In this document: one piece after another, positions 34,099 through 45,487 of the stretch
Position numbering within the stretch: the stretch's first letter is position 1
Layout: each line of letters begins with the position of its first letter
Source: Candidatus Dadabacteria bacterium
GTDB lineage: Bacteria > Desulfobacterota_D > UBA1144 > Nemesobacterales > Nemesobacteraceae
Reading direction: 5' to 3'
NCBI GenBank assembly: GCA_009840385.1
Contig: VXNX01000013.1
Span: 448,222-512,221 of the forward strand
Length of the DNA stretch: 64,000 nt
Translations under genes and position numbers: made by a program
The notes under the pieces: model-generated
Databases searched by the model: none
Told to the model about the DNA's origin: nothing
The model's input: only the letters and a program-made list of their open reading frames with translations

Positions 34099-34962
34099 CT
34101 AGAGAGAAGTGCCGCCGACCATGGCTTCCAGCCTAGCGACTCTCTCTTCGGTCGGAGGATGCGTGCTGAAAAGCTTCGCGAAACCTCCCCCGATCATCGG
34201 GCTAACTATCATCATGTGCGCCGTGCTCTCAGCCGCCTGCTCGCTTACCTGAAGGGGAATTCTTGACGCTCCCGCCTGCAGCTTTCTAAGCGCGTCGGCG
34301 AGATAAAGGGGGTTCCCGCATATCTCCGCCCCGGTCTTATCCGCTCCGAACTCCCTTGTTCTCGATATAGCCATTCTCACGATCATGGCCGCCATAGGGG
34401 CGATAATTGCCATGGCCAAAAGTCCCAGCATTCCCCCGCCGCCTCTTCTGCCACCGCCTCCTCCAAAAATGGCCGCAAACTGCGCCATGTAGGCAAGGTA
34501 GCTGATGGCTCCCGCGATCGTCGCCGCCACGGAACCGATCAGTATGTCTCTGTTCTTTATATGCGCAAGCTCGTGAGCAATTACACCTTTAAGCTCGTTT
34601 CGGTTCAAGAGCCGCGTGATTCCCTGAGTGACTGCGACGGCTGAGTGGTGCGGGTCCCTTCCCGTGGCAAAGGCGTTTGGAGCCTGTTCAGGGATTACGT
34701 AGACCCGGGGCATCGGAAGCCCGGCTATCTGAGCAAGTTCCTCCACATCGGAATAAAGCTGAGGAGCGTCGTCCCTTCCAACTTCACTTGCCTTGTACAT
34801 TCTGAGAACGATCTTGTCGCTCCACCAGTAGCTTGCGAAATTCATAACTCCCGCGAGGACAAGCGCCACCAAGGCGCCGTTTTTGCCCCCGATCATACCT
34901 CCCACCCAAACCAGAATGGCGGAGAGAAAAGCAAGCAGAAAAAGACTTTTAAGAGTGTTCAT
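34099..34962 (-). CDS. htpX: HtpX-family membrane zinc protease
   Basis: A 287-residue M48 metalloprotease of the inner membrane that degrades misfolded membrane proteins. Two N-terminal helices (residues 5-45) are followed by the catalytic domain with HELAH (130-134) after a [15 protein letters not shown] block (88-102), then two more helices flanking a glycine-rich loop ([11 protein letters not shown]). The third zinc ligand is likely the glutamate in [11 protein letters not shown]. The ATG at 34962 is preceded by GGAGG, rather far at 12 nt; an in-frame TAA lies immediately upstream. First gene of an htpX-amidotransferase-uvrA-uppP run. Confidence 0.94.
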
Positions 34963-35123: not shown

Positions 35124-36221
35124 TCAAAACTCAAGTTTAAGCCCACTGGATTTCCCGAAAGGAATTCCTGCTATTTTGCAGGCTTTTCGTAGTATGCGAA
35201 CTTTCCTATCAGTTGATGAATGGGTTTTTAACCACCAGCCTCCGGGAAGACGCCTAGCTGTTTTCTGGGCAACATCATAGTCTCCTAGGTCTGCAAGATT
35301 TCGGGAGAGCTGTTTGTTTTTCCTGCCTTCAACTTCTGGAGCTAGTAGGGTAAGAAAATTCTTATCTCTCTCAGCAAGGATTTCTATGATTTTTGTAAAC
35401 GCAGAAGCTATAGTATCCTGACCTAGATACTCCTCACCTAAAAGAAGAAAAGAAGGCTTTCTTCCAGTCGCTCTTCTTTGAAAACGTTTTTGGTCTTTAG
35501 GTATTTTTGGTTTTATTTCAGAATGAACCTTCAGGCTTCTTTCAACATTTTGGATGCTTCTAAGAAACTCTTCTACATCCGACCTTGCTGGAGCGTATCC
35601 AGAAGAAATCCGCGATGTTTCTTCAATAAGCAGAGTAACAAGTTCGTCGGAAGAACCGTCCAGTAGATTTTCCCAAGCCATGGAAATGTTTTTTCTAGTC
35701 TCAATACTTTTAATTCTTTGATTATGGTCACGCTCTGCATTCTCTTTGGCTTTTCCTGAGCGTGTATTCTGAAAGGATAAATAACGGACCAGTCCATTAA
35801 CTATTTCTTCGTGCGAATGCTTCCCAAAATCCAGAGTACGGACAAGTCTTTCCTCAAATTTCCCTGGGACCATTGGAAGATAGAACCTCCAATGTCTTCC
35901 ATCAGTAAGAACAGCCAGTGGAGCACCTGCGAGGAATGCATATTGAAAAAGTTGGTGGTCGGCATCCAGGTTTCCTTCGGCTTTGACTTCAATTATGCAT
36001 CGCAGACCTTCCCTGTTACCTTTAGAAATTTTGAGACCGTAATCAACCTTGCGTCTATCAAGCGGATACTGCGGACAAACATAATCTGGGCTGTGTATAT
36101 CCCAACCTAGATGTCCAAGAACCGGCAGAACAATCTGCACACTAACGGACTCTTCACTCGGGTAAGAACCTAATCTGCTTTTTACCGAGGATACAAATTC
36201 CAGAAACTCGGAAGATATCAT
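35124..36221 (-). CDS. Stand-alone HsdR_N-like PD-(D/E)XK nuclease with second unknown domain
   Basis: A 365-residue protein. The first 130 residues look like the N-terminal endonuclease domain of type I restriction subunits (HsdR_N): VSVQIVLPVLGHLGWD, D60 in RRKVDYGL and E78-V-K80 in CIIEVKAEG complete the PD-(D/E)XK site, followed by FLAGAPLAVLTDGRHWRFY. No helicase domain follows. The C-terminal about 110 residues form a separate domain (SFLLLGEEYLGQDTIASAFTK ... LPGGWWLKTHSS) whose role I cannot name. The ATG at 36221 is preferred to a TTG at 36239. It is AT-rich compared with neighbours and faces away from a glycosylase-fold gene across 172 nt. No methylase or specificity subunit is near. 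Confidence 0.8.
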   Translation of the reverse strand: MISSEFLEFVSSVKSRLGSYPSEESVSVQIVLPVLGHLGWDIHSPDYVCPQYPLDRRKVDYGLKISKGNREGLRCIIEVKAEGNLDADHQLFQYAFLAGAPLAVLTDGRHWRFYLPMVPGKFEERLVRTLDFGKHSHEEIVNGLVRYLSFQNTRSGKAKENAERDHNQRIKSIETRKNISMAWENLLDGSSDELVTLLIEETSRISSGYAPARSDVEEFLRSIQNVERSLKVHSEIKPKIPKDQKRFQRRATGRKPSFLLLGEEYLGQDTIASAFTKIIEILAERDKNFLTLLAPEVEGRKNKQLSRNLADLGDYDVAQKTARRLPGGWWLKTHSSTDRKVRILRKACKIAGIPFGKSSGLKLEF

Positions 36222-36393
36222 TTCACGAAATTCTAACAATTGTATGGAGTTCGGTCAATCTTAACATAGAAAAATCGGAATTAGTGTGGATTAAAAAAAA
36301 TAACAAATATCTAAAACTCCAACTCTTCTCCTTAGTCAAAGTGTGGTTATTTTTGTTGATATATAACATGGCTATGTATAGTTTCTGAGCACA

Positions 36394-37116
36394 GTGGCAA
36401 ATCATATTTTCCAAGATACTGTAGATCAGATAGAGAATTTCTATGTAGAGCATGGCTACCAACTTGGCTGGAGATTTTTAACTTGCTCCAAAACCGTCTT
36501 GAAAAGCAACCCTAAGATAGCCCTTATTACATTGAATCCAGGCGGGAGTAGAATACGAGACGATCATCCATCGGCCAGTTGTGAAAACGGTAATCCCTAC
36601 TTAGACGAAAGTTGGAAGGACCGAAATCCGGGAGAAAGTCCCTTACAAAAGCAGGTTCAGGCAATGTTTGGCAAAATCCGCGAAAAGACAAATTATCTGG
36701 GAAGTACGCGCAAACTGATTGAATCCACTTTGTCTGGCTATTTCATACCTTTCAGGTCTCCAAGCCTAGATGATCTGGAGCACGGAAAAGAAGCTTTTGA
36801 TTTCGGAGAGAAGATATGGCTAAGAATACTGAAAACCGTTCAGCCGGAGCTGTTTGTATGCATTGAGAAAAAAGCAGCTAAACGCTTAAGAAAAATAATC
36901 GAAATCGCTTACAACTTGCCTGAAAGCAGATCGTGCAAGCTGCCAACCGGCTGGAGCGACACCACCAACTACACTGCCGATATCTTTGAGTTCGGCAGTA
37001 ACACCGAGGTCAAACTCCTGAGACTTCCGCACCTGTCTACATACAAGCTTTTCTCAAGAACAGAATGCGGAGAAAAAATTGAAGACATCTTCACGCAGTT
37101 CTGCGGTAAACAGTAA
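36394..37116 (+). CDS. Uracil-DNA-glycosylase-fold protein
   Basis: A 240-residue protein with the layout of the UDG superfamily. Motif 1 is IALITLNPGGS (residues 42-52), comparable to the GxNPG loop that carries the water-activating residue. FIPFRSPS near 115 and a PELFVCIEKKAAKRL strand follow. The DNA-intercalation motif is LRLPHLSTYKLFSR (208-221), matching the HPS-type motif. It is too divergent to assign a base substrate; Asn in the loop suggests a TDG/MUG-like or atypical site. The start is GTG at 36394, the only start in frame before residue 89. Codon use is AT-leaning (AGA, AAA, TTT), and it is divergent from the nuclease gene at 35124. It differs from the family-4 UDG at 44741. Confidence 0.72.
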   Translation: MANHIFQDTVDQIENFYVEHGYQLGWRFLTCSKTVLKSNPKIALITLNPGGSRIRDDHPSASCENGNPYLDESWKDRNPGESPLQKQVQAMFGKIREKTNYLGSTRKLIESTLSGYFIPFRSPSLDDLEHGKEAFDFGEKIWLRILKTVQPELFVCIEKKAAKRLRKIIEIAYNLPESRSCKLPTGWSDTTNYTADIFEFGSNTEVKLLRLPHLSTYKLFSRTECGEKIEDIFTQFCGKQ

Positions 37117-37233: not shown

Positions 37234-39150
37234 ATGTCTCTTTTAGGTTCAAAAAAATACGAAGTAATAGTAATTGGAGCTGGTCACGCAGGCTGCGAGG
37301 CTGCGCTCGCCGCGGCCAGGATGGGCTGTACCACATTGGTTCTCACGGCAAATATAGATACCATCGGGCTCATGTCGTGTAACCCTTCGATAGGAGGAGT
37401 CGGAAAAGGTCATCTGGTGAAGGAAATAGACGCACTTGGAGGCGAGATGGGAAAAGCCGCCGACACCGCGGCCATACAGTTCAGAAGGCTTAACACCCGA
37501 AAGGGAGCTGCGGTCCAGGCGACCAGGATACAGGCCGACCGCCAAAGCTACAGGACCTACATGAAAAAGGCTCTTGAGGGCGAACCCAACATAGAGATAA
37601 AACAGGCGATGGTCGAGGAGTTTTTGGTTGACGGAAAAAAAGTAGCAGGGGTTAAAACCGCTCTAGGGGAGAGGTTCTTCTCGGATACCGTCGTGGTTAC
37701 CCCGGGAACGTTTCCCGGGGGACTTATACACATAGGACTTACCCGGATCTCTTCAGGACGCGCGGGGGAAGCCGCCGCGGGAGCCATATCGAATTCCTTT
37801 GCGGACCTGGGCTTCACGACGGGACGGCTTAAAACCGGAACCCCTCCGCGCTTTGACGGAAGAACTATCGACTGGGACAAGCTCGAGAGGCAAGACGGGG
37901 ATGTGGATCCGGTGCCTTTTTCCTTTTCCCCCGGAAAAATCACGACGCAGCAGATGCCATGCTACATAACCTACACGAACGAGGAAACTCACCGCGTGAT
38001 AAACGAAAACATGGACAAATCCCCTCTCTACTCTGGCCTCATAAAGGGAATAGGTCCAAGATACTGCCCTTCGATAGAGGACAAGGTGGTCAAGTTTCCC
38101 GACCGTAACCGCCACCAGATATTTCTTGAACCGGAGGGAAGAAACACTTATGAGATCTATCCCAACGGAATTTCGACCAGCCTTCCCATCGAAGTTCAGT
38201 ATGAATTTTCAAGAACCATGGAAGGACTCCACAACGTGGAAATAATGAGGCCTGGATACGCGGTCGAATATGACTTCCTCGATCCCACGCAGCTCGGGAC
38301 GTCCCTTGAATCGAAACTTCTCGCAAACATATTCTTCGCGGGGCAGGTAAACGGAACCACGGGCTACGAGGAGGCGGCAAGCCAAGGACTCATAGCGGGG
38401 ATAAACACAGCGCTTCGGGTGAAAGGAAAAGATCCTTTCGTACTCGGGCGCTCAGAAGCCTACATAGGAATCCTGATTGACGACCTAGTCACAAAAGGAG
38501 TCGACGAGCCCTACAGGATGTTTACATCGAGGGCAGAGTACAGGCTCATATTGAGGGAGGACAACGCCGACCTGAGGCTCGGAGAGCTGGGACACGCCAT
38601 AGGACTTCTGAGTGACGAGCGGATGGAGGAGTTTCGCACAAGGAAAACCAGACTTGAAAACGAACTTGAAAGGCTTGAGAACGAAAAGGTGTTTCCAAAC
38701 GAGAAGACAAACAGGATTCTTGAGAATCTCGGTTCCCAGAGAATCAGAAAGCCCCAGAGCCTAAAAGAGATACTGAGAAGGCCCGGCTTTACTTACGAAA
38801 TGCTGGGCTTTATCGACTCCGCCGCAAACCCGGATATCTCCCCGAAACTCGGAGCGCAGATAGAGATGGAAGTAAAATACGAAGGCTACATAAAAAGGCA
38901 GAAAGAAGAAGTCGGGAAACTGCAGAAGTTCGAGAGCATGAAAATCCCGGAGAAATTCGAATACGGAAGCATCCCGGGACTTTCAAATGAAATCGTTCAG
39001 AAACTATCTAGAGTAAAACCTGAATCGGTAGGGCAGGCAAGCCGCGTTTCAGGTGTAACGCCCGCCGCTATATCGGTACTGCTTGTGCATATAAGGAAAA
39101 TGCGGGGGCTTGAGCAGGAAGCTCAGTTAAAATCAAGTTCCCCGTCGTAA
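37234..39150 (+). CDS. mnmG: tRNA uridine 5-carboxymethylaminomethyl modification enzyme MnmG
   Basis: A 638-residue FAD protein that, with MnmE, modifies the wobble uridine of several tRNAs. The dinucleotide motif GAGHAGCEAALAAARMG is at residues 15-31. Other family blocks are MSCNPSIGGVGKGHLVKEIDALGG, RLKTGTPPR, GLIKGIGPRYCPSIEDK and FFAGQVNGTTGYEEAASQG. The C-terminal helical domain with RPGFTYEMLG contacts MnmE. Length and start are normal. Its last 28 nt overlap a small gene on the other strand. Confidence 0.97.
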   Translation: MSLLGSKKYEVIVIGAGHAGCEAALAAARMGCTTLVLTANIDTIGLMSCNPSIGGVGKGHLVKEIDALGGEMGKAADTAAIQFRRLNTRKGAAVQATRIQADRQSYRTYMKKALEGEPNIEIKQAMVEEFLVDGKKVAGVKTALGERFFSDTVVVTPGTFPGGLIHIGLTRISSGRAGEAAAGAISNSFADLGFTTGRLKTGTPPRFDGRTIDWDKLERQDGDVDPVPFSFSPGKITTQQMPCYITYTNEETHRVINENMDKSPLYSGLIKGIGPRYCPSIEDKVVKFPDRNRHQIFLEPEGRNTYEIYPNGISTSLPIEVQYEFSRTMEGLHNVEIMRPGYAVEYDFLDPTQLGTSLESKLLANIFFAGQVNGTTGYEEAASQGLIAGINTALRVKGKDPFVLGRSEAYIGILIDDLVTKGVDEPYRMFTSRAEYRLILREDNADLRLGELGHAIGLLSDERMEEFRTRKTRLENELERLENEKVFPNEKTNRILENLGSQRIRKPQSLKEILRRPGFTYEMLGFIDSAANPDISPKLGAQIEMEVKYEGYIKRQKEEVGKLQKFESMKIPEKFEYGSIPGLSNEIVQKLSRVKPESVGQASRVSGVTPAAISVLLVHIRKMRGLEQEAQLKSSSPS

Positions 39151-44669: not shown

Positions 44670-44746
44670 TGGCGGGCGATGGGGGATTCGAACCCCCGAC
44701 CCCAGGCTCCGGAGGCCTGTGCTCTAATCCACTGAGCTAATCACCC
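44670..44746 (-). tRNA. tRNA-Arg (anticodon CCG)
   Basis: A complete cloverleaf on the minus strand. Acceptor GGGTGAT/ATCGCCC has one T-G pair, D-stem GCTC/GAGC, anticodon stem CAGGC/GCCTG with loop CTCCGGA, and T-stem GGGGG/CCCCC with loop TTCGAAT. Discriminator G and encoded CCA end it. It reads CGG. Its first six bases (GGGTGA) are also the last codon and stop of the upstream UDG gene. Confidence 0.97.
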
Positions 44747-45487
44747 GTCAACAGGTATCCCGAGTTCCCTCATCACAAGCTTCATGTCCTCCCAGACGGG
44801 CTTTTTAAAAGAGGGGTTTCGCAGCAACGCGGCGGGATGGTACGTAATCATAAGCTTTGAGTTCCCATACTGGTGAAAAGTGCCTCTTAGCTGCCCCATC
44901 TTGAAGTTCTTAAGCTTGAGCATCAATCCGGTAGCAACGCTTCCGAGGGAAACTATGACCTCGGGATTTATGCTTTCTATCTGTTTTTTAAGAAACGGCT
45001 CGCAGCTTGCTACCTCATCGGGTTCCGGGTTCCTGTTGCCCGGAGGACGGCACTTCACGACGTTGCATATATACACGTCCTTTCTCTCAAGCTTCATAGC
45101 CCGGATTATCCTCGTAAGCAACTGCCCCGCCCTTCCGACAAAGGGCCTGCCCTGAATGTCTTCGTCTCTTCCGGGACCCTCGCCGACAAATACAAGTCTC
45201 GCCTTGGGATTGCCCTCGCCGAACACTATGCTCTTTCTCGTCTCGCAAAGACGGCACCTCGTGCAGTCTCCAAGTTCCTCCCTTATCTCGGAAAGCGTTT
45301 GGACCGCCGATGACCCGCGTGGTTCTCTGCGATCATGCGAAAGAGCGGTTCCGTTTTTCTCCGTGTCCGCTATCTCGATCCCTCCTGCCGCAAGCCCCGC
45401 CGGCAGTTCTCCTATTCCGATTTCCTTGCAGAAACGAAGATAGTTCTCAAGCGCCCGCGCCGTCTCGTAAAATTCGTTGGAACTCAT
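44741..45487 (-). CDS. Family-4 (thermostable-type) iron-sulfur uracil-DNA glycosylase
   Basis: A 248-residue repair enzyme that removes uracil from DNA. The core begins after a 70-residue variable N-terminus. It carries the cysteines of the [4Fe-4S] cluster: C75 and C78 (CTRCRLC), C146 (VKCRPPGNRNP) and C162. Motif 1 is VFVGEGPGRDED (99-110), where GEAPG is more usual, and motif 2 is TYHPAALLRNP (about 215-225). The ATG at 45487 is the clear start. Its stop TGA lies inside the 5' end of tRNA-Arg, so the tRNA must be cut from a transcript that also carries the end of this gene, or have its own promoter. Confidence 0.93.
   Translation of the reverse strand: MSSNEFYETARALENYLRFCKEIGIGELPAGLAAGGIEIADTEKNGTALSHDRREPRGSSAVQTLSEIREELGDCTRCRLCETRKSIVFGEGNPKARLVFVGEGPGRDEDIQGRPFVGRAGQLLTRIIRAMKLERKDVYICNVVKCRPPGNRNPEPDEVASCEPFLKKQIESINPEVIVSLGSVATGLMLKLKNFKMGQLRGTFHQYGNSKLMITYHPAALLRNPSFKKPVWEDMKLVMRELGIPVDG

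What the first reader, a model, noticed from the sequence alone, without database searches (positions are those of the whole stretch)
35124..37116. Divergent HsdR_N-like nuclease and UDG-fold pair: possible DNA-defence module
Seen: a stand-alone PD-(D/E)XK nuclease (D60, E78-V-K80) with an unassigned C-terminal domain, and a divergent protein with UDG-type motifs (LNPGG, LPHLS), sharing a 172-nt AT-rich region. Neither has restriction partners near. Known: UDG-fold enzymes can act in phage defence by removing modified bases (Brig1 type), and HsdR_N nucleases occur in defence genes. Inferred: the glycosylase may create abasic sites in modified foreign DNA and the nuclease may cut or sense them.
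Basis: partly seen in the sequence, partly recalled or inferred. Interest (0 to 1): 0.75.

Follow-up and report, generated by a model that had tools for sequence, protein, structure and literature searches.

The report
SeqA-tailed nuclease beside divergent UDG
In an uncultured bacterium (Candidatus Dadabacteria), two fast-evolving, shuffled and often lost genes sit side by side: a DNA-cutting enzyme whose unassigned tail proves to be the DNA-reading domain of the replication regulator SeqA, and a base-removing enzyme of the uracil-DNA-glycosylase fold. They are probably two anti-phage genes sharing one slot, and the nuclease-SeqA fusion is an architecture I could not find described.

Summary
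35124-36239(-) is a PD-(D/E)XK nuclease (D60, E78-V-K80 counted from the conserved ATG at 36221); 36394-37116(+) is a divergent UDG-superfamily protein; 172 nt separate them. New: the nuclease's "unassigned" C-terminus is a SeqA-type DNA-binding domain. A 14-sequence profile finds the five SeqA structures (best E 1.2e-6) and nothing else below 0.1; a homologue with both domains passes Pfam's cut-offs. The pair occupies one slot (htpX|cassette|mnmG) in Candidatus Dadabacteria: of 14 genomes, 7 show both genes or their fragments, 1 glycosylase only, 1 broken nuclease only, 5 neither. Two empty sites keep scars of both gene ends. The cassette is AT-richer, under purifying selection but faster than its neighbours, and mosaic: nuclease domains 90% identical carry tails 43% identical, breaking near the linker. 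Outside the genus the two families never co-occurred among genomes searched, but glycosylase relatives neighbour Wadjet and NACHT genes. A canonical family-4 UDG 8 kb away covers repair. Best reading: two independent DNA-targeting defence genes, a modification- or sequence-reading restriction nuclease and a Brig-like glycosylase. The proposed sequential "glycosylase then nuclease" mechanism is not supported by co-occurrence. No activity was tested.

The parts
35772..36221 (-). HSDR_N PD-(D/E)XK nuclease domain; D60 at 36042-36044, E78-V-K80 at 35982-35990, then a QxxxY-like motif (QLFQY)
   Evidence: Pfam HSDR_N in 7 of 7 members; Foldseek to DrdV, HsdR, BpuSI; invariant D and E columns
35547..35771 (-). 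helical middle region of the nuclease
   Evidence: AF2 secondary structure; evolves with the nuclease domain
35127..35465 (-). SeqA-C-like DNA-binding domain (the 'unassigned' C-terminus)
35466..35563 (.). linker; site of the mosaic breakpoint between nuclease and reader modules
   Evidence: identity jump 54% to 86% between G000 and G012
36222..36393 (.). 172-nt AT-rich divergent intergenic region; promoter-like matches no more than chance
36394..37116 (+). divergent UDG-superfamily glycosylase, 240 aa, GTG start; N48-P49-x-G51, Y69, Y116 at the family-4 base-recognition Asn position (weak alignment), P212-H-L-S215
34099..34962 (-). htpX, conserved left neighbour of the slot
37234..39150 (+). 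mnmG, conserved right neighbour of the slot

Best explanation
The two genes are most likely two separate DNA-targeting anti-phage genes that share one chromosomal slot between htpX and mnmG in Candidatus Dadabacteria. The nuclease is a single-chain restriction enzyme. Its SeqA-type C-terminal domain recognises a short DNA sequence or methylation state on incoming DNA, and its HSDR_N PD-(D/E)XK domain cuts that DNA; it needs no helicase and no dedicated methylase. The second protein is a Brig-like glycosylase that removes a modified (probably non-uracil) base from phage DNA, leaving abasic sites that block replication. Shown by computation: folds and domain identities, the conserved slot, scars and loss, mosaicism, purifying selection. 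Inferred: DNA cutting, which base or methylation mark is recognised, the target being phages, and independence of action.
For: Nuclease domain: HSDR_N in all members, D60/E78/K80, Foldseek to DrdV/HsdR/BpuSI. Reader: SeqA Pfam hit 2.8e-4; PDB profile hits are the five SeqA entries, best 1.2e-6, next unrelated 0.12; the G120 homologue passes Pfam cut-offs for both HSDR_N (1.7e-11) and SeqA (2.2e-6); the domain is combined with SeqA_N + HARE-HTH in G164 and with a PDC-S37-like helicase-MTES_1575 nuclease in G284. Glycosylase: PF03167 in homologues, Foldseek; a canonical family-4 UDG at 44741-45487 and a second UDG-family match exist, so repair is covered; the position aligned with the base-recognition Asn is Y, S or H in the genus. 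Defence-like genetics: slot conserved, presence patchy, G006/G007 keep the ends of both genes, GC 38-45% against about 50-56% around, dN/dS 0.09-0.24 against 0.01-0.06 in neighbours, module exchange at the linker. Homologue contexts: Roseibium glycosylase beside a NACHT protein with nuclease-like N-terminus; G506 glycosylase beside Wadjet JetABC, WYL and TnsC; G069 nuclease near a Hachiman-type HmaA/DrmD-like helicase.
Against: No activity is known for any member. The immediate neighbours in Dadabacteria are housekeeping genes, not a defence island. The AF2 models are moderate (nuclease pLDDT 73.7, reader loop below 50) to low (glycosylase 61.7). Four of the five SeqA residues that contact GATC differ in the window protein, so methyl-GATC reading is not implied. 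In G069 the catalytic Lys is Thr. Some homologues (e.g. G332) sit among metabolic genes.
Confidence: 0.55

Rival explanations
1. A coupled two-enzyme module: the glycosylase makes abasic sites in modified phage DNA and the nuclease recognises or cuts the damaged DNA.
For: Adjacent and divergent with a shared 108-172-nt region in the intact loci; within the genus presence is associated (7 both, 1 and 1 single, 5 none; Fisher p 0.026, ignoring phylogeny and resting on a shared slot); lost together in G006/G007.
Against: Each gene is kept intact alone in one genome (G003, G002). No co-occurrence outside the genus: none of the nuclease-bearing genomes outside it had the glycosylase. The modules recombine independently. 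The nuclease has its own reader domain.
Confidence: 0.15
2. The nuclease is a restriction enzyme, but the glycosylase is a repair paralogue for a damaged base, carried along by chance in the same slot.
For: UDG folds are mostly repair enzymes; neighbours include uvrA; the glycosylase persists without the nuclease in G003.
Against: A canonical family-4 UDG is present in 13 of 14 genomes; the gene is patchy and fast-evolving, and relatives lie beside Wadjet and NACHT genes.
Confidence: 0.2
3. The SeqA-like tail makes the protein a regulator or replication/segregation factor with a decayed nuclease, not a defence enzyme.
For: SeqA regulates replication initiation in gammaproteobacteria (PMC6225831); one homologue (G069) lacks the catalytic Lys.
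Against: Catalytic residues are intact in all the complete Dadabacterial copies except a D-to-C reading in none of the intact pairs; N-domain dN/dS about 0.1-0.2; no SeqA_N oligomerisation domain was detected; the gene is dispensable and shuffled. (G002, the copy without a glycosylase, reads VDCG where others read VDYG; its D is kept.)
Confidence: 0.1

Closest known systems
SeqA C-terminal DNA-binding domain (PF03925; PDB 1lrr, 1iu3, 1j3e, 3fmt, 3sk7)
   Same: Homologous over about 90 residues including the G-R-x-x-x and W-x-x-T-[N/H] stretches.
   Different: Fused to a nuclease instead of SeqA_N. Of the five GATC-contact residues (R116, T117, R118, N150, N152; PMC6225831) only R116 is kept in the window protein; N150 is H and N152 is S.
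Modification-dependent (type IV) restriction enzymes of one chain, e.g. PD-(D/E)XK-SRA PvuRts1I (PMC12707154)
   Same: PD-(D/E)XK nuclease and a separate DNA-reading domain in one protein; no adjacent methylase.
   Different: Reader is SeqA-type, not SRA; modification dependence not tested.
HsdR (type I restriction) N-terminal nuclease, PF04313/PF13588
   Same: Nuclease fold and D...E-x-K motif.
   Different: No SF2 motor; no HsdM or HsdS nearby.
Brig1 / Brig3 anti-phage DNA glycosylases (PMC11078745, PMC13160076)
   Same: Divergent UDG-superfamily fold, relatives in defence islands, altered base-recognition position, no role needed in ordinary repair.
   Different: Brig sequences could not be compared here; substrate unknown; next to a nuclease instead of BapA or other Brig neighbours.

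Membership tests
Brig-type defence glycosylases | UDG-superfamily fold | tested here: met
   PF03167 in homologues, Foldseek hits all UDG superfamily; model confidence low
Brig-type defence glycosylases | direct sequence homology to Brig1/2/3 | not tested
   Brig sequences not held by the tools used
Brig-type defence glycosylases | location in defence islands | tested here: inconclusive
   not in Dadabacteria; yes for G506 (Wadjet) and Roseibium (NACHT)
Brig-type defence glycosylases | excises a modified phage base and protects | not testable with these tools
   needs enzyme and plaque assays
Type IV / modification-dependent restriction | nuclease domain plus DNA-reading domain in one chain | tested here: met
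Type IV / modification-dependent restriction | no dedicated methyltransferase beside it | tested here: met
Type IV / modification-dependent restriction | cleaves only modified DNA | not testable with these tools
   needs assays
Type I restriction HsdR | SF2 translocase domain and HsdM/HsdS partners | tested here: not met
   365-aa protein, no helicase domain, no partners in 29.7-43.1 kb
SeqA | SeqA C-terminal domain homology | tested here: met
SeqA | SeqA_N oligomerisation domain | tested here: not met
   no hit in the window protein
SeqA | GATC-contact residues R116, T117, R118, N150, N152 | tested here: not met
   R, K, N, H, S at the aligned positions (residues from PMC6225831)

The most novel reading that the evidence does not exclude
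SeqA-type domains form a general DNA-reading module of bacterial defence proteins: fused to HSDR_N nucleases, HARE-HTH proteins and helicase-nucleases in several lineages, and exchanged or diversified like target-recognition domains. The replication regulator SeqA would then be a domesticated relative of a restriction reader, or the reverse.
Probability: 0.4. Interest if true: 0.78.

Novelty: new variant of a known kind. Interest (0 to 1): 0.58.

Why it matters
SeqA is treated as a specialised reader of hemimethylated GATC in gammaproteobacteria. Finding its DNA-binding domain as the tail of restriction-type nucleases in distant bacteria, with signs of module exchange, gives a testable origin for SeqA and a candidate new class of DNA readers for restriction enzymes. 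The glycosylase adds a distinct UDG-fold branch, with relatives beside Wadjet and NACHT genes, to candidates for Brig-type base-excision defence.

Tried and rejected
Phage records (tblastn) and IMG/VR (pattern scan) gave no glycosylase relative; the nuclease found only partial phage endonuclease matches over the N-terminal domain. PADLOC has no model for either protein (only a weak MTase_I match). A sigma-70 promoter scan of the intergenic region found one match against 1.2 expected by chance. Repeat and tRNA scans gave no sign of an integrated element at the slot. A single-sequence hhalign of the glycosylase profile to the canonical UDG is weak (E 0.018) and was used only to place the Asn position, which MAFFT placed the same way. 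The Dam-type methylase survey was inconclusive: absent in G000, G002, G005, G010, matched in other nuclease-bearing genomes. The NCBIfam TrlF hit (5e-5) covers only the middle of the nuclease and was not followed. Full-text searches found no paper linking SeqA with HARE-HTH, or a SeqA-like domain with restriction endonucleases; this is limited to the open-access library.

Full report
What is there. The window comes from a 1.66-Mb genome; the only named relatives found by the glycosylase protein are Candidatus Dadabacteria MAGs. Between htpX (34099-34962, -) and mnmG (37234-39150, +) lie two divergent genes: a nuclease on the minus strand and a UDG-like protein on the plus strand. The relatives of the nuclease align from MISS, so ATG 36221 is the likely start. 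The stretch has 38-45% GC against about 50-56% in most of the flanks.

Nuclease domain. Pfam HSDR_N hits the window protein just below its cut-off (4e-5) and all seven aligned members. AF2 (7 sequences, mean pLDDT 73.7) gives an N-terminal alpha/beta domain. Foldseek matches it to DrdV (E 3.4e-4), an HsdR fragment, BpuSI and EcoR124I HsdR. The D and E are invariant; Lys is Thr only in the distant G069 copy.

The tail is SeqA. The window protein alone hits Pfam SeqA (2.8e-4) and NCBIfam SeqA (0.0026). A profile of the tail alone, then of 14 tails, finds the five SeqA entries of the PDB at 7.6e-4 and then 1.2e-6, with the next unrelated entry at 0.12. In genome G120 the homologue passes Pfam's cut-off for both HSDR_N (1.7e-11) and SeqA (2.2e-6) in one 382-aa protein. 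Independently, the same tail ends a 264-aa protein of G164 that also carries SeqA_N (0.0011, below cut-off) and HARE-HTH (1.4e-14), and a 2039-aa PDC-S37-like helicase with an MTES_1575 nuclease in G284. Alignment places the SeqA GATC contacts R116, T117, R118, N150, N152 (residues from PMC6225831) at R, K, N, H, S in the window protein; other members have mostly N or H at N150 and mostly S at N152. It is therefore a SeqA-fold reader whose specificity is probably not that of E. coli SeqA.

Glycosylase. The window protein has no Pfam hit; a Roseibium plasmid protein (about 36% identical) hits UDG at 8.6e-7, above the cut-off, and a Synechocystis one at 0.0023. The AF2 model is weak (pLDDT 61.7), yet the first 34 Foldseek hits are TDG, MUG, SMUG1, family-4 UDG or UdgX (best 3.4e-3). 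Shared motifs are NPxG, a Y in the G-x-x-Y stretch, FRS and PHLS. The Asn that reads the base in family-4 enzymes aligns with Y116 here, S or H in other Dadabacteria, Q in Synechocystis, and N in Roseibium, G280, G506 and G651. The corresponding residue was reported as a Glu in Brig1 (PMC11078745). A canonical family-4 UDG lies at 44741-45487 and a UDG match at the Pfam cut-off is present in 13 of 14 genomes, so this gene is not the housekeeping enzyme.

One slot, patchy. In all genomes of the genus the genes, when present, lie at this slot. Both intact: G000, G012, G005. Both, on contig ends: G009 (both intact ORFs) and G013 (glycosylase split). Both as fragments at contig ends: G001. Nuclease intact with glycosylase remnant carrying three stops: G002. 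Glycosylase alone, intact: G003. Nuclease alone, broken: G010. Neither: G004, G006, G007, G008, G011, with 211-285 bp between htpX and mnmG. In G006 and G007 the short spacer matches G012 up to the last codons of the nuclease and again from the last codons of the glycosylase, the scar of a deletion of both genes. Co-presence in the 14 genomes gives Fisher p 0.026, without correction for kinship and partly explained by the shared slot.

Module exchange. G000 and G012 nuclease domains are 90% identical but their tails 43%; G009 and G013 are 91% and 49%. Synonymous divergence for G000-G012 is 0.39 in the nuclease domain, saturated in the tail, 1.74 in the glycosylase and 0.70 in mnmG; for G009-G013 it is 0.23, 1.98 and 0.36 (nuclease domain, tail, mnmG). 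The identity jump lies near 35563, at the linker. Trees of the nuclease domain, tail and mnmG disagree with support of about 0.95 or more at the key nodes. It remains open whether the nuclease block or the tail is the part that moved. All parts are under purifying selection (dN/dS 0.09-0.24 against 0.01-0.06 for mnmG/htpX).

Outside the genus. In 291 genomes scanned with both profiles, nuclease relatives occur in 46 (many by the nuclease domain only) and glycosylase relatives in 10; outside the genus no genome has both. Glycosylase relatives lie beside a NACHT protein with a nuclease-like N-terminus in Roseibium and beside an FtsZ-like gene (by eye), a WYL regulator, TnsC and complete Wadjet JetABC in G506. 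The G069 nuclease lies about 2.5 kb from an HmaA/DrmD-like helicase.

Interpretation. The genetics fit defence genes, and the domains fit DNA targeting. Each gene can stand alone and the nuclease carries its own reader, so I favour two independent defence genes over a coupled two-step system. The folds, slot, scars and mosaicism are computed results. DNA cutting, the recognised mark or base, and phage defence are inferred. The novelty lies in the HSDR_N-SeqA architecture, which I did not find described in the literature available here.

Noticed in passing
L078:2492-5290 (G280) and L164:7223-9970 (G506): A repeated three-gene set: FtsZ/tubulin-like protein (assigned by eye), distant UDG-fold protein and WYL regulator; in G506 it lies between Tn7-like genes and a complete Wadjet JetABC.
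   Followed up: partly
L093:1480-2271(-) (G164): Protein with SeqA_N-like, HARE-HTH and SeqA-C-like domains, i.e. a SeqA-like protein with an inserted HARE-HTH domain.
   Followed up: partly
L126:8206-14322(-) (G284): 2039-aa PDC-S37-like helicase with MTES_1575 nuclease, DUF3320 and a SeqA-C-like tail.
   Followed up: partly
window 44741-45487(-): Canonical family-4 (Fe-S type) uracil-DNA glycosylase, conserved in the genus.
   Followed up: yes
L057:4154-4960(-) (G006), also G001 and G007: Extra gene of about 1 kb between the glutamine amidotransferase gene and htpX, by its sequence an alpha-type carbonic anhydrase in G006 (recognised by eye; the inserts in G001 and G007 were not read).
   Followed up: partly
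L063:10858-15210 (Roseibium plasmid): 1450-aa NACHT protein whose N-terminus matches PADLOC CBASS endonuclease-type effector and LmuA models.
   Followed up: no
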